Source: Actinomycetes bacterium (GTDB lineage: Bacteria > Actinomycetota > Thermoleophilia > Solirubrobacterales > Solirubrobacteraceae). Taken from it: a stretch of DNA of 32,324 bases. Position 1 is the first letter of the stretch, and each line of letters begins with the position of its first letter. Shown piece by piece: positions 22,220 to 29,061 of this stretch. Below the pieces are notes generated by a model. The model did no database searches. It had not been told where the DNA came from and saw only the letters and a program-made list of their open reading frames with translations. The position numbers and the translations under genes were made by a program. The stretch is taken from assembly GCA_021820105.1 (NCBI GenBank), contig JAKAED010000027.1:1-32324 (forward strand). Reading direction: 5' to 3'.

Positions 22220-22292
22220 GCCGGCGTAGCTCAGTTGGTAGAGCAGCGGACTTTTAATCCGAAGCGCCTGGGTTCGAGTCCCAGCGCCGGCA
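22220..22292 (+). tRNA. tRNA-Lys (anticodon TTT)
   Basis: Full cloverleaf of 73 nt. Acceptor GCCGGCG (22220-22226) pairs with CGCCGGC. The D-arm is GCTCAGTTGGTAGAGC, the anticodon loop CTTTTAA, and the T-arm CTGGG-TTCGAGT-CCCAG, with discriminator A at 22292 and no encoded CCA. The top pair of the anticodon stem appears as a G-A mismatch. It marks the left edge of an accessory region. Confidence 0.95.
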
Positions 22293-22337
22293 CTGAAAAT
22301 TCCAGGTAATCGCGATTTACTTGTTGCCTGGCTATCA

Positions 22338-22360
22338 GGGACATGTCCCCAATATGTCCC
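22338..22360. repeat. GGGACATGTCCC palindrome with additional half-site
   Basis: A perfect 12-bp palindrome at 22338-22349 is followed after 4 nt by ATGTCCC (22354-22360). It could be a regulator site or a REP-like element; nothing nearby decides. Confidence 0.4.
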
Positions 22361-22680
22361 GGTGCCCTTAGGGATAGCGGGCTGGATGCTCGGCCTGTGC
22401 TGCGGGCTGCTGGTCGCGACGACCCGACGGATCAGGCGTCACCGACCGACCCCTCCTGGCTGAGTTAGCTGCAGCCTGACCGGTCTCGCTTTGATCCCGG
22501 CACGCGGTTGTCTCGCGTTATGCGAGACACCCCGCTTCGCGCGGACAGCTGGGCTGACGAGTGCCCGCGATTCGTCGCCGCCCGAGGACCCAACTCCATC
22601 GACCCGACCGGACCGATCTCGGTAGGAAGCTCTCACTCAGTGGCAAAGCAGCGTCTGCCCGTGGGTCGTGGTCAGATCGG

Positions 22681-22686
22681 TAGCGT
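22681..22686 (+). promoter_or_regulatory. -10 hexamer TAGCGT for the gene at 22693
   Basis: TAGCGT, six bases (TCGCGT), then TTG 22693. The spacing is the same as for the purC, glyoxalase and 27753 genes, which supports the unusual TTG start. Confidence 0.45.
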
Positions 22687-22692
22687 TCGCGT

Positions 22693-22953
22693 TTGACGAT
22701 TGACGATCTGCCGCGCATGGTGCGCCAGCGCCTGGATGAGTTGATCGCAGCCATTCCGGATGCTGAGGATGCCTACGACCTCGCGCTCAGCGTCGTGGGA
22801 TGCGTCTCCGACGTCATGGAAGAGTCGGAACTGGCGTCCCGCCTATACATCCTGTGGGCCGACATCACCGACTTCTATGAGTTGAGACCGGATCACGATC
22901 GACCGCGCTGGCACTCATTCGAGAAGTTGGGGGCCAATGGCCGCAGCGGATGA
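22693..22953 (+). CDS. Small acidic protein of unknown function, first gene of a two-gene unit
   Basis: 86 residues from TTG 22693. I do not recognise the family. It is acidic and appears all-helical (LPRMVRQRLDELIAAIPDAEDAYDLALSVVGCVSDVMEESELASRLYILWADITDFYEL), with no membrane segment or catalytic motif that I can see. The stop overlaps the ATG of the next gene (ATGA 22950-22953), so the two are coupled. Small size, coupling and position beside three toxin-antitoxin pairs make an antitoxin- or immunity-like role possible, but this is inference only. Confidence 0.6.
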   Translation: MTIDDLPRMVRQRLDELIAAIPDAEDAYDLALSVVGCVSDVMEESELASRLYILWADITDFYELRPDHDRPRWHSFEKLGANGRSG

Positions 22954-23459
22954 GCGAGGATGAGCTACCAGACGCGGACCTAGACCGGTGGGACTCGCTA
23001 ATAGCCGCGGCCGTCCGTTCGGCCGGTAAGCCGCCGCCGTTACTCGGGCAGAACGCCTGGGGGCTCCCGCAGCGCCAGATCCTGGTGTCCTTCGACCCAG
23101 CAGCGAACGCCGTGTACGTCACGCTCGACGAGAATCCGGACGGTGTCGGACCAACTCAGGTCACCGACGCCGGCGTGATCGTCGACACCGACTCTCACGA
23201 GCACATCCGTGGCCTGGAGTTCCTGGCGGTTCGAGAGCGCGGGCTCCCGTCCGGCGAATTGCCCGCCCTTATCCGACGAACGCTGGACCTCTTCGAGCAG
23301 TCGAGGGCACTCGCCAGCGAAGCTTGCGTAACCAAGCGATACCACCGAGGCCCCCACGGTCAGAGCGCGGAGCCCCGCTGCCCGCATTACCGTGACACCG
23401 CACCACGCCGAGACTTGCATCCACGCGCCGGTGCAACTATCAGCGCCGGACCCGTCTGA
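22950..23459 (+). CDS. DUF2283-like small protein, second gene of the unit
   Basis: 169 residues from ATG 22950. Residues about 48-95 (ILVSFDPAANAVYVTLDENP...TDAGVIVDTDSHEHIRGLEFL) resemble the short beta-rich DUF2283 domain. Members of that family are often next to toxin-antitoxin-like genes, but their biochemical role is not established as far as I know. The last 45 or so residues (from about ACVTKRYHRGPHGQS) have a composition unlike a folded domain and may reflect a frameshift or decayed end. The true protein may therefore stop functionally near residue 120. Confidence 0.55.
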   Translation: MSEDELPDADLDRWDSLIAAAVRSAGKPPPLLGQNAWGLPQRQILVSFDPAANAVYVTLDENPDGVGPTQVTDAGVIVDTDSHEHIRGLEFLAVRERGLPSGELPALIRRTLDLFEQSRALASEACVTKRYHRGPHGQSAEPRCPHYRDTAPRRDLHPRAGATISAGPV

Positions 23460-23518
23460 TCTCAGTTGCGCGGTAGTCGAGAGCCCAGCGCTAGCGCGCT
23501 GTGAGGCTGTGCGGCTGC

Positions 23519-23941
23519 TCAGCTTTGCGGTGGCGTGGAGTCCCAGGGGTTGAGCAGCCGCACGTGGCACCCCTGGAAGTCTTTGGTGTTCCGGGTGACG
23601 ACCGTGAGTTCGTGAACGTGGGCTGTTGCCGCGATGAGGCTGTCTACGGTGTTTCGGCTAGCGACAGCGTTGAGTAGTCCCCACTGGTCGGCGACACGCG
23701 AGTCGACGGGGAGGATTCGTCCTGCGAACCGGGTCCGCAGCTCCCCTAGCCAGCGGGTGAACACATCTGCCTGGACAGGGTCTCGTCGTTGCAGGCGATC
23801 GATCCCGGTCCTGATCTCACCGAGGGTCAGGACGCTCAGGTACAGCTCGGAGCCATCAACGGTGTCGGCCCATGCGCGCACGTTAGGGTCACGGCCGCGC
23901 CTGATCTCAGAGACCGCGTTGGTGTCCAGCAGAAAGCTCAA
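23519..23941 (-). CDS. vapC: PIN-domain ribonuclease toxin (VapC/FitB-like)
   Basis: 140 residues starting MSFLLDTNAVSEIRRG, the FitB/VapC form. Acidic metal-binding residues fit D6, E42 (LGEIRTGI), D100 (VDSLIAATA) and D121 in TRNTKDF. The family cleaves RNA with Mg2+ and is held inactive by its antitoxin. The start overlaps the antitoxin stop by ATGA (23938-23941), the standard antitoxin-first order. Which RNA it cuts is unknown. Confidence 0.92.
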   Translation of the reverse strand: MSFLLDTNAVSEIRRGRDPNVRAWADTVDGSELYLSVLTLGEIRTGIDRLQRRDPVQADVFTRWLGELRTRFAGRILPVDSRVADQWGLLNAVASRNTVDSLIAATAHVHELTVVTRNTKDFQGCHVRLLNPWDSTPPQS

Positions 23942-24180
23942 AGCTCGACGTCGCGGCCGGTATCGCCGGCACGGCGGAGATCGAGCAACTCGAAGTCCGG
24001 GGCCGACCGGATGAAATCAACCAAACTCGGTTCGCCGCCGCTGAGCCGTCGGTAGTCCTCTGCTGAGACGACCACGACTGCGTCCTTGCCGTGTTTGGTG
24101 ACGACCTGTGGGCCCTCATTGCGTGCCCGTTCGACGAGCTCACTGAAGTGCTGTTTGGCTGTCTGAAGCTGCCAGGCCAT
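23938..24180 (-). CDS. Phd/YefM-family antitoxin
   Basis: 80 residues: MAWQLQTAKQHFSELVERARNEGPQVVTKHGKDAVVVVSAEDYRRL is the classic Phd/YefM N-terminal DNA-binding and dimer domain. The C-terminal tail (PDFELLDLRRAGDTGRDVEL) would wrap the VapC toxin. GAGG lies just upstream of the ATG. Tandem 9-bp repeats in its promoter suggest autoregulation. Confidence 0.93.
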   Translation of the reverse strand: MAWQLQTAKQHFSELVERARNEGPQVVTKHGKDAVVVVSAEDYRRLSGGEPSLVDFIRSAPDFELLDLRRAGDTGRDVEL

Positions 24181-24197
24181 GATCTACCTCGAACGTT

Positions 24198-24242
24198 CTG
24201 GACAGACTGGACAGATTCTATCAGTAGAGTGGTGCATCTCAA
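24198..24242 (-). promoter_or_regulatory. Promoter and tandem-repeat operator of the Phd/VapC pair
   Basis: On the minus strand, TTGAGA (24237-24242), a 16-bp spacer and TAGAAT (24215-24220) make a good sigma-70-type promoter. Just downstream are two exact tandem copies of CTGGACAGA as read on the plus strand (24198-24206 and 24207-24215), overlapping the -10 edge and the expected +1. That position suits repression by the antitoxin or the complex. Confidence 0.6.
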
Positions 24243-24342
24243 CTGAAGCCACCCAGTCCTGCCTTGATGTCGCGCCAGGCATCTGGCCACAGCTCACCAC
24301 TCCCCTGCTGCGCGCGGAACTTGCGCACCGGCTTGTGTGGGT

Positions 24343-24693
24343 TCAGGCTCGGTTGAGCCTGAGCGCGCGTACAAGGCCGGCATCGGTCTGCGCCATCAGC
24401 CAGTCTGGGAGAGCGCCTTTCTTTTCCTCGAGCGCGCCGCGGTCGATGGTGGCGATCTGGGTGACGTTCAGTACCGAGTCGTCCTCCAATCCGCTCACGT
24501 CTGCGGGAACGATCACATTGCCGGGTAGCCCTGCCAGTTGCTGTGTGGTGGTGATGACCGCGACCGTGACGGTCTGAAGCCGTGAGCGGTTGTATTGATC
24601 GGCGCTGATGACCAGAACAGGTCTGCGAAGGGCGGGCGCTGATCCGCGCGGCAGACCGAGATCAGCCCACCAAACCTCTCCGCGGGCGATCAC
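24343..24693 (-). CDS. mazF: MazF/PemK-family endoribonuclease toxin
   Basis: 116 residues. The family start MIARGEVWWADLG, RRPVLVISADQYNRSRLQTVTVAVITT (with Arg24 and Thr48-50 in the positions of the MazF active site) and VLNVTQIATIDRGAL are clear. MazF proteins cut mRNA or other RNA at short sequences; specificity is unknown here. Its start overlaps the end of the RHH antitoxin by ATGA (24690-24693). Confidence 0.93.
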   Translation of the reverse strand: MIARGEVWWADLGLPRGSAPALRRPVLVISADQYNRSRLQTVTVAVITTTQQLAGLPGNVIVPADVSGLEDDSVLNVTQIATIDRGALEEKKGALPDWLMAQTDAGLVRALRLNRA

Positions 24694-24926
24694 GCTCGGT
24701 CGGCGCGCTGAGCTAGGACGGCTGCCGCGGCGTCGGTGAATGCCGTGTCTTGCTCAATCCCGGCAAGCGCTTCGTTGATCGCGTCGGTGGTCTGGTTGTC
24801 GTCGAGGTCGTGCAACCAGCGCTCAGCGGCGCGCGCGAAGAACTCGCTGCGGGACACACCCAGCTGGGCAGCGGCGCGCTCGACACGCTCGAAGGTCTCG
24901 TCTGGCAGAGAAATCGCGGTCTTCAC
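24690..24926 (-). CDS. mazE: Ribbon-helix-helix antitoxin (MazE-like)
   Basis: 78 residues from GTG 24924-24926: VKTAISLPDETFERVERAAAQLGVSRSEFFARAAERWL is a standard RHH DNA-binding domain, followed by an acidic toxin-binding tail. A longer frame reaches ATG 25049, but the extra 41 residues are not family-like. A perfect TATACT ends seven bases before the GTG, which favours this start and a leaderless mRNA. Operon with mazF. Confidence 0.9.
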   Translation of the reverse strand: MKTAISLPDETFERVERAAAQLGVSRSEFFARAAERWLHDLDDNQTTDAINEALAGIEQDTAFTDAAAAVLAQRADRA

Positions 24927-24933
24927 ACCACCG

Positions 24934-24939
24934 AGTATA
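24934..24939 (-). promoter_or_regulatory. -10 hexamer TATACT of the RHH/MazF pair
   Basis: TATACT on the minus strand with a 7-nt spacer (CGGTGGT) to GTG 24926. A near-consensus -10 in the leaderless arrangement. Confidence 0.55.
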
Positions 24940-25441
24940 ACCAGGTCATACTGCGTCGGGCGGTGTTTCTCGCAGGGTCCAGCTTCAGCGTCGCGACGCG
25001 CAACCCGTGGTCCGGATCGAGATGCACGCAACGCGCGGGTTGCGTGCATGTGGCTAATAAGAGGGTGTCCTTGGGCGTCGGCGCCAACTGCGGACTATCG
25101 ACGTATGTATCGCGTATTGCGGGCAAAACGTCGATAGTCGCCTTCGCCTCGGCCAAGCGGCAAGTGACCGCACGGCCACGCAAAGGCAACTCCAGCCGCA
25201 CCCGCTCTTCCGCTCCGACGGGCATCTCCCGCCGCGCCCCGAAACACGTGGAATGCGCGGCCTGCAGGGCTGCGGTGGCCGGTGACCAGACCTGCGTACG
25301 ACCGCAGTCGTGTCCTGGCGAGGAGTAGGGCTCTCGTGAAGGTGTCCGGAGAGACCCGCTTCGGTTCGCTGCGAGGATTGTGCTCGGCGGGGAGCGTCCG
25401 GGGGTGGCTTGGTCGCGGCTGTCGGTGGTTTCGGTTGCTAT
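24940..25441. other. About 500 bp without a convincing gene
   Basis: Frames here are either upstream extensions of neighbours or lack family similarity. One minus-strand frame (24923-25225) has a protein-like composition but overlaps the RHH promoter. The stretch holds a perfect 12-bp inverted repeat (25093-25104/25128-25139). It may be the remains of a decayed gene. Confidence 0.45.
25093..25139. repeat. Perfect 12-bp inverted repeat with a 23-nt loop
   Basis: GACTATCGACGT (25093-25104) and ACGTCGATAGTC (25128-25139) are exact complements, in DNA with no assigned gene. It could be a recombination or regulator site or an RNA stem; no flanking features decide. Confidence 0.6.
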
Positions 25442-26410
25442 TCAGCCGGAGATGCTCGTGGTGGCGTGGTTGAAGCAGCCGGTTCCGGCTCTGGTGTCGC
25501 CGGGTGGGGGCGGTCCTTGGTGGGTGTAGTTGTGCTGCGCGGTCTTGACTAGTCGCGGTCCGTGCCAGGTGAACGTTGAGGCGGTTTCCTTCCAGGGTGC
25601 TTTCAGCAGATTGCCGAGGGGGATGAACACCCGTTGGATCACGCGAGCTCGCGGCAGGCAGCTGAACCCGGCCTGTACGCCTGAGTCTCCGCCGTACCCG
25701 AGCGAGATGCCAGCGGAGGTCAGCCGATGGTGATAGAGGCTGTACACGTTGGCGGTCGAGCCGCTTGAGATCTCGTTCACCTGAATGAAGATCTTCTCGC
25801 TCTCACCCTTGCCGATGTTCGCGATCCCGAGTAGCGCCGCCGCGCCGGGGCCGCCTTTGAGAACCGTGGTGGTGCGCACGCCGTTGGGGGCGATGACACG
25901 CAACTCGGCTCGCGTTGCCATGAATTCCTTGCTCAGGCTGGCTGGCGCGCCAGGGGAGCTGAAGTGGGTGTGGCTGAGCCGCGAGTAGAGCAGCACCAGG
26001 TAGGTTTGGCCGTTGCCGGTGAGATCCGCGCGTCGTACGGTGACGCATCCAGACCGCGGCGGCAGATACCGATTCGGCGGGGCCAGGAAACACGCGTCAT
26101 GCGCGATGCCGCCTGGGTTTGGCTGACTGGCCGGTGCGCCCGGGAACAACTGGCTGGCTGAATGCCCGGGGATCGAGCCCGGGGCGGGCGCCTGAACGAC
26201 GCCGTGACGACCTCCCCCGCTACCACTGCCGCCCGAGCCTGAGGAACCGAGGATCAGCCCCCCAACGATGAGCACCGTGACGGACAGGGCAGCGCCCAGG
26301 ACGCGATGTCGAAGCTGCCGGCGGCGTGCCTCCTCGATGACCCCAGCGTCGATGCCAGGCTCAGCTTGCGTCGGTGTCTCGGGTGGGGTCGGGGGTGACT
26401 GAACCGCCAT
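25442..26410 (-). CDS. Single-pass membrane protein with a large extracytoplasmic domain
   Basis: 322 residues. A Pro-rich start, then a basic stretch GVIEEARRRQLRHR, one membrane helix at about 37-57 (VLGAALSVTVLIVGGLILGSS), a Gly/Ser linker and an exported domain of about 240 residues. That domain has several Cys (DACFLAPPN, SGCVTVR, FSCLP, TGCF) that may pair as disulfides. The phrase ADLTGNGQTYLVLLYSRL resembles FG-GAP-like repeats but is not enough to classify it. It starts 26 bp from a divergent GntR regulator, which probably controls it. Confidence 0.7.
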   Translation of the reverse strand: MAVQSPPTPPETPTQAEPGIDAGVIEEARRRQLRHRVLGAALSVTVLIVGGLILGSSGSGGSGSGGGRHGVVQAPAPGSIPGHSASQLFPGAPASQPNPGGIAHDACFLAPPNRYLPPRSGCVTVRRADLTGNGQTYLVLLYSRLSHTHFSSPGAPASLSKEFMATRAELRVIAPNGVRTTTVLKGGPGAAALLGIANIGKGESEKIFIQVNEISSGSTANVYSLYHHRLTSAGISLGYGGDSGVQAGFSCLPRARVIQRVFIPLGNLLKAPWKETASTFTWHGPRLVKTAQHNYTHQGPPPPGDTRAGTGCFNHATTSISG

Positions 26411-26415
26411 GCCAA

Positions 26416-26436
26416 TGTGCTAGCCTAGGTGGCACA
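26416..26436. promoter_or_regulatory. Dyad between the divergent GntR and membrane-protein genes
   Basis: TGTGC and GCACA flank 11 bases (26416-26436), with 7 of 10 positions pairing. The element fills the gap between the two divergent starts and includes AGGTGG before the GntR TTG. A likely operator for the GntR protein. Confidence 0.4.
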
Positions 26437-26784
26437 TTGCTTGAAGTCAAGCTTGACCGTGAAGATCCGGCTCACCTCCACGAACAGGTGGCGGCGGAGA
26501 TCCGTCGCGCAATCGCCGACGGTGAGGCCAGCTCAGGTGACCGTCTCCCGCCCGCGCGGCACCTTGCCGCAGTGATGGGTGTGAACACCAACACGGTGCT
26601 GCGTGCGCTGCGCGCGCTACGCGATGAGGGGCTGCTTGAGATGGCACCCCGCCGCGGTATCCGAGTCGTCGGCACCCCCGCCCAGAGCGAGCTGCGCAGC
26701 AAAGTCGCCGAGCTCCTTCAGCTCGCTCGCGAGCAGGGCTATACACGCAACGATCTTCAGCAGATGATCGCCAACGCTTCCTAG
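26437..26784 (+). CDS. GntR-family regulator, YtrA subfamily
   Basis: 115 residues from TTG 26437: LDREDPAHLHEQVAAEIRRAIADGEASSGDRLPPARHLAAVMGVNTNTVLRALRALRDEGLLEMAPRRGIRVVG is a GntR winged HTH (about 6-79). It is followed by a short dimerisation helix region, as in YtrA. YtrA proteins usually sit beside ABC transporter genes; none is here, and only the divergent membrane gene and a broken relative are adjacent. TTG is chosen because AGGTGG lies 4 nt upstream; an in-frame start further upstream would overlap the divergent gene. Confidence 0.88.
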   Translation: MLEVKLDREDPAHLHEQVAAEIRRAIADGEASSGDRLPPARHLAAVMGVNTNTVLRALRALRDEGLLEMAPRRGIRVVGTPAQSELRSKVAELLQLAREQGYTRNDLQQMIANAS

Positions 26785-26791
26785 CTCGCCC

Positions 26792-27007
26792 ATGCCGACG
26801 GACGATCTACCACTCGCGCGGACCGACGGTGGTGCCAGGGTTAAGGCCGGGGTGATCGAGGACGCACGCCGACGCAAACGTAACTGGGCGGGCACCTGCT
26901 TCGATGCCATGGCGCGCCTCTCGGTCGCGGTCGACTCAGACGCGGAATGCGCGGAGGGCACCACCGGTGGTTGGCCGATCAGCCGCTGCGCTGCACTTGC
27001 CTGCTGA
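26792..27007 (+). pseudogene. Truncated paralogue of the divergent membrane protein's N-terminus
   Basis: A 71-residue frame starting 7 bp after the GntR stop. Residues 14-30 (GARVKAGVIEDARRRKR) closely match DAGVIEEARRRQLRHR of the membrane protein at 25442-26410, but the membrane helix and exported domain that should follow are missing. It may be the leftover of a second target gene once carried in an operon with the GntR gene. The 3' end overlaps the convergent VapC gene. Confidence 0.5.
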
Positions 27008-27371
27008 TCCGCTTGAGCTTCTTGTCGAGTGTGAGGAGGTCCGCGTCGCTGACGAGCGCTGTGGCGAGTGACATAGCGTCGGGCAGTCGCAGCGACGAGT
27101 GCTCGGCACGGAGTTCCGCCGCTCGGCGAGCTACCGCTCGGTCCACAATGACGAACCGGACACCAGCGGCGTCAAGGAAGCCATCTACGGTCGCTGCGTT
27201 TCCTTGCTGCAGCGGTCGAACGATCACCTCGGCGTAGACCGTCGCGCCGATCAGTAACTCGTCACCGGCGGTCAGTCGCGGGCGGAGCTCTTCTATCGCG
27301 CGCTCGTGCTGTGCGTCCCCGGGATCGAGGAACGCGATCAGCAGATCCGCATCGAGCGCTACGCGCGCCAC
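26979..27371 (-). CDS. vapC: PIN-domain ribonuclease toxin (VapC)
   Basis: 130 residues: MARVALDADLLIAFLDPGDAQHERA with D7, E48 (VYAEVIV), D98 (RLPDAMSLATA) and D116 (LTLDKKL) as the likely metal-binding acids. Its start overlaps the AbrB-type antitoxin by 13 bp. It differs clearly from the FitB-like PIN protein at 23519, so the two modules are not recent duplicates. Confidence 0.9.
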   Translation of the reverse strand: MARVALDADLLIAFLDPGDAQHERAIEELRPRLTAGDELLIGATVYAEVIVRPLQQGNAATVDGFLDAAGVRFVIVDRAVARRAAELRAEHSSLRLPDAMSLATALVSDADLLTLDKKLKRISRQVQRSG

Positions 27372-27580
27372 TCGTCCCGGAGCTGGTGAAGGTAGCCGGG
27401 TGGGTAGGTCCCGGCCGGGAGGCTCCCGGCGTACCGGTCGATTACGTCTTCGGCGCGCTCGACCTCGATGCGGCCACGCCCGACAACGCGGATCACGACC
27501 TCATCGCCGGCCTCAAGGCCCGCATCCTCAAGCACCCGGACAGGCAGCGTCACCTGATGCTTGCTGGACACCTTGCTCAT
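27359..27580 (-). CDS. vapB: AbrB/SpoVT-family antitoxin
   Basis: 73 residues: MSKVSSKHQVTLPVRVLEDAGLEAGDEVVIRVVGRGRIEVER is the swapped-hairpin AbrB DNA-binding domain. The C-terminal part (DRYAGSLPAGTYPPGYLHQLRDEWRA) would bind VapC. AAAGG directly precedes the ATG. The promoter carries TTTACC/GGTAAA repeats. Confidence 0.92.
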   Translation of the reverse strand: MSKVSSKHQVTLPVRVLEDAGLEAGDEVVIRVVGRGRIEVERAEDVIDRYAGSLPAGTYPPGYLHQLRDEWRA

Positions 27581-27581
27581 C

Positions 27582-27607
27582 CTTTACCAGTTTACCACCC
27601 GGTAAAG
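27582..27607 (-). promoter_or_regulatory. Operator/promoter of the AbrB/VapC pair
   Basis: CTTTACC (27582-27588) and GGTAAAG (27601-27607) form a perfect 7-bp inverted repeat, with a further TTTACC half-site at 27591-27596. The minus-strand -10 TAAACT (27589-27594) lies inside the repeat, 8 nt from the start codon. Binding by the antitoxin would block the promoter. Confidence 0.6.
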
Positions 27608-27740
27608 CGGCCGTGTGGGCCCTGCTTCACCGTCCCCACACGCATCTTGCACGCGCGGTGCTGAGTTGCCCTTTGCGCGGAACTCGTGCAGATGAGCTGG
27701 CCGGTCCCCGGCAGGCTTGGGTGATGTCGTCTCCGGGAGC

Positions 27741-27746
27741 TACTTT
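27741..27746 (+). promoter_or_regulatory. -10 hexamer TACTTT for the gene at 27753
   Basis: TACTTT, six bases (TACGTC), then ATG 27753. It selects this ATG over the in-frame GTG/ATG candidates upstream, which would overlap the promoter. Confidence 0.5.
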
Positions 27747-27752
27747 TACGTC

Positions 27753-28013
27753 ATGCCCGCCGATGACACAGTGAGCCAGCTGGAGCGGGAACTTGAGGTG
27801 GTTGAGCGGTCGATGTCGACGGTTGGGGCGTTGAGCGCGCAGCAGGCTGAGCGGGTCGCGGAGCGGGTGGACCGCTTGGCGTCCCAGCTGCTTGAGATCA
27901 CGGCGCCGGAATCGTGGGATGCGGTGCATGCGCGGCTCGGCACCACACCGGCAAGCAGCGAGGATTTCTCAGCGCTCTCGGGCGAGTTGGGTTCACCCGA
28001 CGACGAAGGCTGA
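27753..28013 (+). CDS. Small coiled-coil protein, unknown, first gene of a two-gene unit
   Basis: 86 residues from ATG 27753. SQLERELEVVERSMSTVGALSAQQAERVAERVDRLASQLLEI shows heptad-like spacing of Leu/Val and probably forms a helical hairpin or coiled coil. An acidic tail (SSEDFSALSGELGSPDDEG) follows, as in many antitoxins. I know no family for it. The next gene starts 4 nt after its stop. Antitoxin- or chaperone-like function is inference from size, tail and context. Confidence 0.6.
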   Translation: MPADDTVSQLERELEVVERSMSTVGALSAQQAERVAERVDRLASQLLEITAPESWDAVHARLGTTPASSEDFSALSGELGSPDDEG

Positions 28014-28017
28014 GGCG

Positions 28018-28410
28018 GTGCCTGCCGCCGCTGGTGCTCGTCGCCTGCCCGTCAGGTTCGATGAGCGTGTCTGGCAGGAGGCGCTACGCGGGTTCTCCGG
28101 GCGTGCGCTTGAGGTTGCCGTCAGCACCCGCAAGCGACTTGAGCTCGACGGCCTGGCGTTGGCCGAGGCTCTCGCATGTGAGGCGCAGGGTGCCGATGGC
28201 ACGCTGCTTGCCGGCTGCGCGAAGGTCTATCTGCCGCTCGGGCAGGGACCTGCGTCTCAGCGACCGTTCGGGATGGTTGTGCAGCTCGCCCGGGGCGGGC
28301 AGCAGGAGCTGCTGTGGGTGTTTGTCGCTTTCGGGCCGCGTCACCCAAGACCGGGCGTGCGGACCGTGTATGAGCGAGCACACCGGCGTCTGCATGGGCG
28401 CTTCCCGTAA
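28018..28410 (+). CDS. Unknown 130-residue basic protein, second gene of the unit
   Basis: Starts at GTG 28018 with GAGGC upstream; the frame is open further back but there overlaps the first gene. The N-terminus is basic/helical (RFDERVWQEALRGFSGRALEVAVSTRKRLELDG). A beta-rich middle follows (AKVYLPLGQGP...FGMVVQLARGGQQELLWVFVAFG), then a basic end VRTVYERAHRRLHGRFP. The shape recalls small RelE-like or other toxin folds, but I see no diagnostic residues and cannot assign a family. Candidate toxin of an undescribed pair, by inference. Confidence 0.55.
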   Translation: MPAAAGARRLPVRFDERVWQEALRGFSGRALEVAVSTRKRLELDGLALAEALACEAQGADGTLLAGCAKVYLPLGQGPASQRPFGMVVQLARGGQQELLWVFVAFGPRHPRPGVRTVYERAHRRLHGRFP

Positions 28411-28549
28411 TCCCGTTAGCACCCGAGCGCCAGTCCCGCTTCCGCTTCCCGGCCAGCATCTCGCGAGCCGCAACGAATCACCTGCTGAGCGCGGATCTCA
28501 CCAGCTGGTGGGAGCACAGTGCGATGCGACCTTGTGAGATGCTCTTGGC

Positions 28550-28801
28550 GTGGAACAGCGCATCAGCTGTGTGACTCTCGGCGTCGGCGACCTGGCCCGG
28601 GCGCGCCGCTTCTATGAGGCGCTTGGATGGTCTGGAGCAAATCAGCCCGATGACGAGGTCTGTTTCTTCCAGGCTGGCGGGATGGTCTTCGGTCTCTGGA
28701 CGGCGCTCGGCGGGCACGGCGCTCCCGGCATTGAGCTGGCGCATAACGTTCGTACCCCCGAAGAGGTCCAAGCGCTGCTCGAGGATGCAGACGGCCGCTC
28801 C
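28550..28801 (+). pseudogene. VOC/glyoxalase-like gene truncated next to tRNA-Asp
   Basis: GTG 28550 begins VEQRISCVTLGVGDLARARRFYEALGW...VCFFQAGGMVFGLW...IELAHNVRTPEEVQALLEDA, a clear N-terminal part of a VOC-family dioxygenase/glyoxalase-like protein. Family similarity stops near residue 83. The second half, with the usual FADPDGH-WE metal-ligand motif, is missing. The frame stays open to 28996 only by running antisense through the tRNA-Asp gene; the resulting GLEPATSGVTGRRSNQLSYAP is the familiar spurious tRNA translation. The gene therefore looks broken at the tRNA 3' flank, perhaps by a past integration or deletion. Confidence 0.7.
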
Positions 28802-28847
28802 AACGGCAGCAGCTTTTTGTCGAGCGCGGACGGGATTTCTAATGAAA

Positions 28848-28921
<74 letters not shown>

Positions 28922-29061
28922 TTTGGGCTCCGCTCAGTATGGCAAGCGGCGCGCATTTTCGCGGTCGCGCAACTTTTCTCCCCGCGGAGTGCTTAAACGG
29001 TTGCAATCACTTCAAGGCGCCCGACCCAACCCGGCCGTGGGAACGGCGCCGAGAAGCGACC

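What the first reader, a model, noticed from the sequence alone, without database searches (positions are those of the whole stretch)
27753..28410. Possible undescribed toxin-antitoxin-like unit: coiled-coil protein plus basic beta-rich protein
An 86-residue coiled-coil protein with an acidic tail is followed after 4 nt by a 130-residue protein with a beta-rich core and a conserved-looking basic end (YERAHRRLHGRFP). Size, order, charge complementarity and location beside known pairs fit a toxin-antitoxin module, yet I can place neither protein in a family.
Basis: inference. Interest (0 to 1): 0.55.

Follow-up and report, generated by a model that had tools for sequence, protein, structure and literature searches.

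The report
Divergent RelE-like toxin with modular antitoxins
Two small neighbouring genes, probably of an actinobacterium, most likely form an undescribed toxin-antitoxin pair, in which a remote cousin of the RNA-cutting toxin RelE is held in check by a partner whose last 28 residues are shared by partners with quite different front halves.

Summary
The two genes are real: both evolve under purifying selection (dN/dS 0.119 and 0.135). The second protein belongs to a patchy, often broken family found only in the window's class, nearly always its order (33 of 201 order genomes), without a match in Pfam, NCBIfam, PADLOC or PHROGs. Of 37 complete copies, 36 follow a small gene with a shared tail; the last lies at a contig end. 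These partners have at least six unrelated front halves, two resembling DNA-binding domains, but one C-terminal tail (PxxEEFxxxxGxLPxDGEG) that profiles trained on the other classes recognise: antitoxin architecture. Profile-profile comparison places the toxin in the RelE superfamily: E 8e-7, 0 of 600 shuffles as good, RelE first of 470 E. coli ORFs. RelE's Lys52, Arg81 and Tyr87 have counterparts; Arg61 does not, and a near-invariant His has appeared. Toxicity, binding and RNA target are inferred; structure prediction did not confirm the fold.

The parts
27753..28013 (+). Antitoxin gene (86 aa): helical, coiled-coil-like head (class A, by eye) plus the family tail
   Evidence: dN/dS 0.135 against L004; same head class in L004, L008 and L046
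27927..28010 (+). Shared antitoxin tail, last 28 residues ending PDDEG: inferred toxin-binding segment
   Evidence: 4 of 4 class A tails score above the best of 3550 decoys with a profile built only from the other head classes (3 of 4 without the last four residues); found as a tail by the genome search
28005..28015 (+). Shine-Dalgarno-like GAAGG/GAGG in the antitoxin's last codons and stop, just before the toxin's GTG: likely translational coupling (inference)
   Evidence: read directly from the sequence; similar layout in most relatives listed
28018..28410 (+). Toxin gene (130 aa, GTG start): divergent RelE-superfamily protein
   Evidence: hhalign against RelE E 8.4e-7 over 92 columns, 9.3e-7 with the window protein as first row; dN/dS 0.119
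28222..28224 (+). Codon of Lys69, opposite RelE Lys52
   Evidence: 35 of 35 rows K; register
28339..28344 (+). Codons of Arg108 (opposite RelE Arg81) and His109 (opposite RelE Glu82)
   Evidence: R in 32 of 35 rows, H in 32 of 35; register
28369..28371 (+). Codon of Tyr118, opposite RelE Tyr87
   Evidence: 34 of 35 rows Y; register

Best explanation
A chromosomal type II toxin-antitoxin module. The downstream gene makes a divergent RelE-superfamily toxin that most likely stops translation by cutting RNA. The upstream gene makes its antitoxin: a variable head, probably for dimerisation and in some relatives DNA binding and autoregulation, plus a conserved acidic tail ending in -LPxDGEG-COOH that most likely binds the toxin over its active-site face. 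Shown by computation: two genes under selection, tight linkage, a shared tail on unrelated heads, profile similarity to RelE. Inferred: toxicity, neutralisation by the tail, RNA as target, autoregulation.
For: Linkage: 35 of 37 complete toxin copies have the tailed partner just upstream; of the two others, one (L061) was cut by the edge of the fetched stretch and shows its partner in the wider one (L179), and one (L005) lies at a contig end. Background: 49 of 3595 distinct ORF ends are [GDHE]EG, most of them the partners themselves. Exchangeable heads: classes A-F (4, 12, 15, 6, 1, 2 partners), with no clear similarity between the heads of A, B, C and D except one C/D hybrid (L068). Tails of each held-out class are found by the others above the best of 3550 decoys: A 4/4, B 12/12, C 14/15, D 6/6, E 1/1, F 2/2; without the last four residues 3/4, 10/12, 12/15, 6/6, 1/1, 2/2. 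Two heads resemble DNA-binding families: MazE E 1.1e-4, just under its cut-off, and HTH_23 just above its cut-off. Asymmetry: tails without a toxin match in six of 14 regions fetched. Toxin: hhalign against RelE prob 91.6, E 8.4e-7, score 40.7, columns 11-123 against 3-95, 0 of 300 and 0 of 300 shuffles as high, maximum 20.0; E 9.3e-7; RelE first of 470 ORFs from four E. coli regions, 25.8 against 18.1 for the next. Residues: K52, R81, Y87 opposite K69, R108, Y118; R61, R81 and Y87 matter for RelE cleavage (PMC2807027, passages). Selection: dN/dS 0.119 and 0.135.
Against: No toxicity, binding or RNA data. No Pfam, NCBIfam, PADLOC or PHROGs family for the window protein and only stray weak single-member hits in the rest of the 22; best PDB sequence by HMMER E 0.47, unrelated. 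RelE's Arg61 is opposite Gly in 31 of 35 rows and Lys54 opposite Tyr in 34. A profile of short actinobacterial ParE gives only weak support (score 17.1; 7 of 600 shuffles as high), Gp49 none (but Gp49 does not match RelE itself either), and YafQ, YoeB and HigB rank low. The window's own antitoxin head has no recognised domain. Part of the DGEG conservation at DNA level may serve as the toxin's ribosome-binding site, though L006 keeps the tail across a gap of about 50 nt. One complete toxin (L034) has a partner whose head I could not recognise.
Confidence: 0.85

Rival explanations
1. Type II toxin-antitoxin module whose toxin has a RelE-like fold but does not cleave RNA: a ParE-like gyrase poison or another activity.
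For: The RelE/ParE superfamily includes DNA gyrase poisons (recalled). RelE's Arg61 and Lys54 are not kept here, and an extra stretch with a near-invariant C..DGT is present before the second strand.
Against: The best register is to RelE itself and includes the counterparts of Tyr87 and Arg81. The short actinobacterial ParE set scores far lower (17.1 against 40.7).
Confidence: 0.17
2. Not a toxin-antitoxin pair but a regulator plus a small RNA-binding or enzymatic effector that are always co-expressed.
For: No toxicity has been shown; some heads look like transcription factors; tailed proteins without the toxin exist.
Against: A tail conserved across unrelated heads, patchy multi-copy distribution with many broken copies, similarity to RelE, and a position among three other toxin-antitoxin pairs.
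Confidence: 0.08
3. The shared tail is a by-product of the toxin's ribosome-binding site (GACGGCGAGGG) rather than a protein-binding segment.
For: The DNA gacggcgaggg(c/g/a) before the stop is nearly constant and lies a few bases upstream of most toxin starts.
Against: Similarity extends upstream of the last four residues and is still detected across head classes without them, though with more misses (34 of 40 against 39 of 40). L006 keeps DGEG with the toxin start about 50 nt away. Some tailed proteins without a toxin match keep it (L178, L183; others end DDEG, DDKG or DGEE).
Confidence: 0.04

Closest known systems
RelE (RelBE, E. coli K-12; RelE superfamily)
   Same: Profile alignment over 92 columns, nearly the whole of RelE. 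The FDER start, the DCYKIKL/GCAKVYL stretch, the GxR motif, the VYxxA helix and a small size are shared. Lys52, Arg81 and Tyr87 have counterparts.
   Different: Longer (about 120-130 aa against 95); an extra stretch with C54 and D60-G61-T62; Arg61 is opposite Gly and Lys54 opposite Tyr; near-invariant His109; similarity remote; no RelB match in Pfam for the window partner or the ten others scanned; seen only in one bacterial class in the genomes searched.
MazE/AbrB- and HTH-headed type II antitoxins
   Same: Layout of an N-terminal head followed by an acidic C-terminal tail; one relative has a MazE-like head (AbrB also weakly) and two an HTH-like head (one tested, the other by eye).
   Different: The tail gave no credible Pfam match in the partners scanned; most heads, including the window's, match no family.
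Panacea (PanA) antitoxins
   Same: Combinatorial exchange of parts within toxin-antitoxin systems (PMC8832971, PMC10440598: search listing and start of abstract only).
   Different: There one antitoxin domain meets many toxins; here one toxin family with one tail meets many antitoxin heads. No tail was seen with another toxin family, but neighbours of solitary tails were inspected by eye only.
M. tuberculosis RelE1
   Same: A RelE-family toxin of an actinobacterium; it shows that targets vary within the family (16S rRNA anti-Shine-Dalgarno region; PMC12620021, passages).
   Different: RelE1 keeps the counterpart of Arg61 (R65, from the passages); the present family does not.

Membership tests
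Type II toxin-antitoxin module | Two small adjacent co-oriented genes, constantly linked | tested here: met
   36 of 37 complete copies have the partner upstream (35, one more); the last is at a contig end
Type II toxin-antitoxin module | Antitoxin with an exchangeable DNA-binding or dimerising part and a conserved toxin-binding tail | tested here: inconclusive
   Six head classes and one tail by sequence, a MazE-like and an HTH head; but no binding was tested and the window's own head has no known domain
Type II toxin-antitoxin module | Second protein toxic alone, harmless with the first | not testable with these tools
   Needs expression tests
Type II toxin-antitoxin module | Patchy, decaying distribution; antitoxin tolerated alone | tested here: met
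   10 of 28 genomes of the genus listed; broken copies; array and tails without toxin match
RelE superfamily | Significant profile similarity over the whole domain | tested here: met
   E 8.4e-7, 92 columns, 0 of 600 shuffles; 9.3e-7; first of 470 ORFs
RelE superfamily | RelE/RNase T1-like three-dimensional fold | tested here: inconclusive
   Models with pLDDT 53 give three helices, three strands and a last helix but no significant PDB match
RelE superfamily (RelE proper) | Residues needed for mRNA cleavage: Arg61, Arg81, Tyr87 (PMC2807027) | tested here: not met
   Arg81 and Tyr87 counterparts kept, Arg61 opposite Gly in 31 of 35 rows; so not filed as RelE proper, only as a divergent superfamily member
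ParE_toxin (PF05016) and Gp49 (PF05973) | Match to the curated Pfam model | tested here: not met
   No Pfam family with E <= 1 for the window protein, and neither family among the matches of the 22 members
VapBC, MazEF (neighbouring systems) | PIN or PemK toxin domain | tested here: not met
   No PIN or PemK match for ORF 2 or the 22 members

The most novel reading that the evidence does not exclude
A new branch of the RelE superfamily with a rebuilt active site: RelE's transition-state arginine is gone, and a near-invariant His next to the Arg81 counterpart supplies RNase T1/YoeB-like acid-base chemistry, perhaps on a substrate other than A-site mRNA. It is neutralised by a free C-terminal -DGEG tail that plugs that site. 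The tail has been grafted onto at least six unrelated heads, so that the regulatory part of the module can be swapped while toxin recognition stays constant.
Probability: 0.3. Interest if true: 0.65.

Novelty: new variant of a known kind. Interest (0 to 1): 0.5.

Why it matters
It adds an unannotated toxin-antitoxin family in what is probably the order Solirubrobacterales (inferred from the title of L006) and shows how such families stay hidden: a RelE relative too far for curated models, beside partners that look unrelated to each other until their tails are aligned. The constant tail on many heads gives a clean natural experiment on which part of an antitoxin recognises the toxin and which part sets regulation, and the altered active site makes a testable case of changed chemistry or target within the RelE fold.

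Tried and rejected
Structure prediction: only window proteins and loci of the search for related loci were permitted as input, so both jobs had four rows and gave poor models. Foldseek and VIA-align results on them are not informative; absence of RelE there is not evidence either way. HMMER profile against PDB sequences: best E 0.47, unrelated. The first RelE test used short actinobacterial ParE sequences: weak; Gp49: none, but Gp49 does not match the RelE set either, so it was a poor template. Plasmid and phage searches with the window toxin and three relatives: none, or chance-level hits at E 0.7-0.8 in other genes. Viral contigs: none except L035, which lies inside a long terminase-like frame (judged by eye) and was dropped. 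A RelE-like ORF beside L050 (L188:1989-2471; 8.3 bits) was followed without result; the empty genome search is weak evidence, since its own genome was not in the rows shown. Promoter scan: 0 found; terminator scan: 1 found, 0.7 expected; the inverted repeats had no chance control and I draw nothing from them. Considered and rejected: that ORF 2 is a spurious frame, and that the tail is only a ribosome-binding site.

Papers: searches for an earlier description found none; I saw listings and abstract starts, plus passages of PMC2701414, PMC2807027 and PMC12620021; a find in PMC4803016 gave no passage.

Caveats on counts: partners were picked by a C-terminus ending in EG, so E and G at the last two places of the 40 partners are constant by selection. 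Two partners (L034, L029) were dropped before the class and tail counts. In the first held-out test the 'best decoys' scored up to 48; five ORFs with tails, found (four next to toxin stretches, one without), were removed. The 35-row toxin alignment holds one frameshifted row (L053). Head classes were assigned by eye. The profile searches scored at most 30, 14 and 11 first-look candidates per genome, so their counts are lower bounds: G055, found, is not among their matches.

Full report
The observation. Both reading frames are present as described: 27753-28013 (86 codons, ATG) and 28018-28410 (130 codons, GTG), 4 nt apart on the + strand. Compared with the 82%-identical copy in L004, both genes change mainly at third codon positions and have dN/dS of 0.135 and 0.119 in the proposed frames. 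Eight of the ten other frames give values above 1; two reverse frames that mirror the codon positions give 0.25 (toxin; interrupted by stops) and 0.19 (antitoxin; open). The frames are real genes.

Distribution of the second gene. A protein query finds it at E <= 0.001 in 33 of 201 genomes of the window's order and in 3 of 246 drawn from the phylum, all three of that order. A 22-row profile finds it in 29 of 146 genomes of the family, 18 of 299 of the class and 2 of 396 of the phylum; these three are lower bounds because only part of the first-look candidates was scored. One hit lies in another family of the class (G637). Within the genus, 10 of the 28 genomes listed carry it. Some genomes have several copies: G292 has five and G439 an array. 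Several copies contain stops or frameshifts. In named genomes, L004 and L005 ('Actinomycetes bacterium') are 82% and L006 ('Solirubrobacterales bacterium') 46% identical; these were the only three of 129 pattern-matched stretches that held. No credible plasmid, phage or viral match was found. The pattern is that of a chromosomal, patchily inherited, frequently decaying module.

The upstream partner. Among 49 distinct toxin stretches in the fetched loci, 37 are complete, and 35 of these have an upstream ORF ending in EG, as a rule within about ten bases of the toxin start. Of the two others, the one in L061 was cut by the edge of the fetched stretch and shows its tailed partner in the wider stretch L179; the one in L005 lies at a contig end. 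In all 3595 distinct ORF ends of these loci only 49 end in [GDHE]EG, most of them the partners. Forty partners fall by eye into six head classes: A, coiled-coil like the window (4); B, VEIDGRRY-type (12); C, SGDxxGDYVV-type (15); D, TKAEL-type (6); E, MazE/AbrB-like (1); F, HTH-like (2); two partners of poor quality were left out. Head profiles of classes A, B, C and D do not find heads of other classes above 7 bits, except L068, a C head with a D-like linker (22 bits). In contrast, a profile of the last 28 residues trained without a class finds that class: A 4 of 4, B 12 of 12, C 14 of 15, D 6 of 6, E 1 of 1, F 2 of 2 above the best of 3550 decoys. Without the last four residues it still finds 3/4, 10/12, 12/15, 6/6, 1/1 and 2/2. 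The consensus is roughly PxxEEFxxxxGxLPxDGEG. The partner in L016 matches MazE_antitoxin (E 1.1e-4, 22.6 bits, cut-off 24.7) and that in L027/L047 matches HTH_23 just above its cut-off (25.7 against 24.6 bits). Tailed proteins in L178 and L179 show a further kind of head.

Asymmetry. Tails also occur without a toxin. Of 14 regions fetched around tail or head hits, six (L175 with two, L176, L177, L178, L183, L185) hold a well-scoring tail at a C-terminus (24 bits or more; seven in all, one ending DDKG and one DGEE) and no toxin match above 8 bits. In L183 only a 45-codon frame carries the tail; L185 ends with its contig about 1.1 kb after the tail; neighbours were inspected by eye only. Two further regions (L182, L184) hold degraded tails without a toxin match. 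No complete toxin with upstream DNA lacked a tailed partner, though in L034 the partner's head is not recognisable. Broken toxins keep an intact-looking partner in L012, L020, L077 and L070; in L029, L074 and L076 both look damaged. This one-way tolerance is what a toxin and its antidote would give, on small numbers. A tree of 34 toxins shows head classes largely inherited with toxin clades (6 changes, the minimum being 5, shuffled mean 18.2): head exchange looks old and infrequent, not rampant.

What the toxin is. No curated family matches the window protein, and the other members have only stray weak hits; no PDB sequence matches by HMMER (best E 0.47). A first profile-profile test with short actinobacterial ParE toxins was suggestive only (score 17.1; 4 of 300 and 3 of 300 shuffles as high), and with Gp49 negative. 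Nine RelE sequences of the E. coli type gave a clear result: probability 91.6, E 8.4e-7, score 40.7, covering toxin columns 11-123 and RelE 3-95; none of 300 + 300 column shuffles reached it (maximum 20.0). The same comparison with the window protein as first row gave E 9.3e-7. In a ranking of 470 single ORFs of 70-220 codons from four 49-kb E. coli regions, chosen because they hold RelE-type toxins, RelE came first (25.8; next 18.1; mean 10.5, s.d. 2.4), covering 90 columns; YafQ, YoeB and HigB did not rank. As a yardstick, RelE against the ParE set gives E 5.6e-12, but RelE against Gp49 gives nothing. I conclude that the protein is a divergent member of the RelE superfamily, closer to RelE than to the other branches tested. 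Structure prediction neither confirms nor denies it.

Mechanism. In the alignment RelE Lys52, Arg81 and Tyr87 face Lys69 (K in 35 of 35 rows), Arg108 (R in 32) and Tyr118 (Y in 34). Lys54 faces Tyr71 (34 of 35) and Arg61 faces Gly85 (Gly in 31 of 35, Arg in 2). In E. coli RelE, mutating Arg61, Arg81 or Tyr87 to Ala lowered mRNA cleavage, while K52A and K54A showed no significant decrease (PMC2807027, passages). So two of the three important residues are kept, one is mostly lost, and a His (His109, 32 of 35) sits next to the Arg81 counterpart. The same passages say that RelE lacks the catalytic His and Glu of YoeB. A His-assisted RNase is therefore a reasonable but unproven guess. M. tuberculosis RelE1 cuts near the 3' end of 16S rRNA rather than A-site mRNA (PMC12620021, passages), so the target should not be assumed. 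The acidic tail of the antitoxin (net -1 to -8 in 40 partners) probably covers this site; the toxin as a whole is not always basic (-6 to +13).

Comparison and novelty. As a module it works like a type II toxin-antitoxin system of the relBE kind with antitoxin first; membership in the RelE superfamily is supported by profile similarity, not by structure, and membership in RelE proper fails on Arg61. The association of one toxin family with several antitoxin kinds is known in principle (tables and passages of PMC2701414), but there the pairs are listed as whole antitoxin families; here the tail is constant while the head changes. I found no earlier description (and the family libraries). I rate it a new variant of a known kind.

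Setting. The module lies beside three other toxin-antitoxin pairs on the opposite strand (23522-24180, 24343-24932, 26979-27580), in a 6.5-kb stretch between tRNA-Lys (22220-22293) and tRNA-Asp (28848-28921), which looks like an insertion hot spot (inference).

Noticed in passing
window 22220-28921: Three known-type toxin-antitoxin pairs plus this module lie between a tRNA-Lys and a tRNA-Asp gene: a possible insertion hot spot.
   Followed up: partly
window 28550-28996: A glyoxalase/bleomycin-resistance-like ORF matches its family only in part (E 0.0021, below the cut-off) and its frame then runs through the tRNA-Asp gene on the other strand: probably a truncated gene.
   Followed up: partly
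L179 (G439:C41), minus strand: Three complete toxins plus further tails, heads and a toxin fragment of the same family in one 7.5-kb stretch: a tandem expansion or graveyard.
   Followed up: partly
L178 and L179:5956-6136 (minus strand, oriented coordinates): Tailed proteins with a further kind of head (DDELDDIVxFLACR-like). In L178 no toxin of the family follows; the next ORFs look MazEF-like by eye.
   Followed up: no
L188:1989-2471: A 160-aa RelE/ParE-like ORF by eye (YRLRE...ILAVGVGH...AYQAATRLL), without Pfam, NCBIfam or plasmid match; a search of 346 genomes found no relative, which is weak evidence. It lies near a class C head without its tail.
   Followed up: partly
window 26374-26784 and 25442-26410: A short GntR-family regulator gene (136 aa) next to an uncharacterised 322-aa protein on the opposite strand.
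   Followed up: no
window 22950-23459: A 169-aa protein with a marginal DUF2283 match near the same tRNA-Lys.
   Followed up: no
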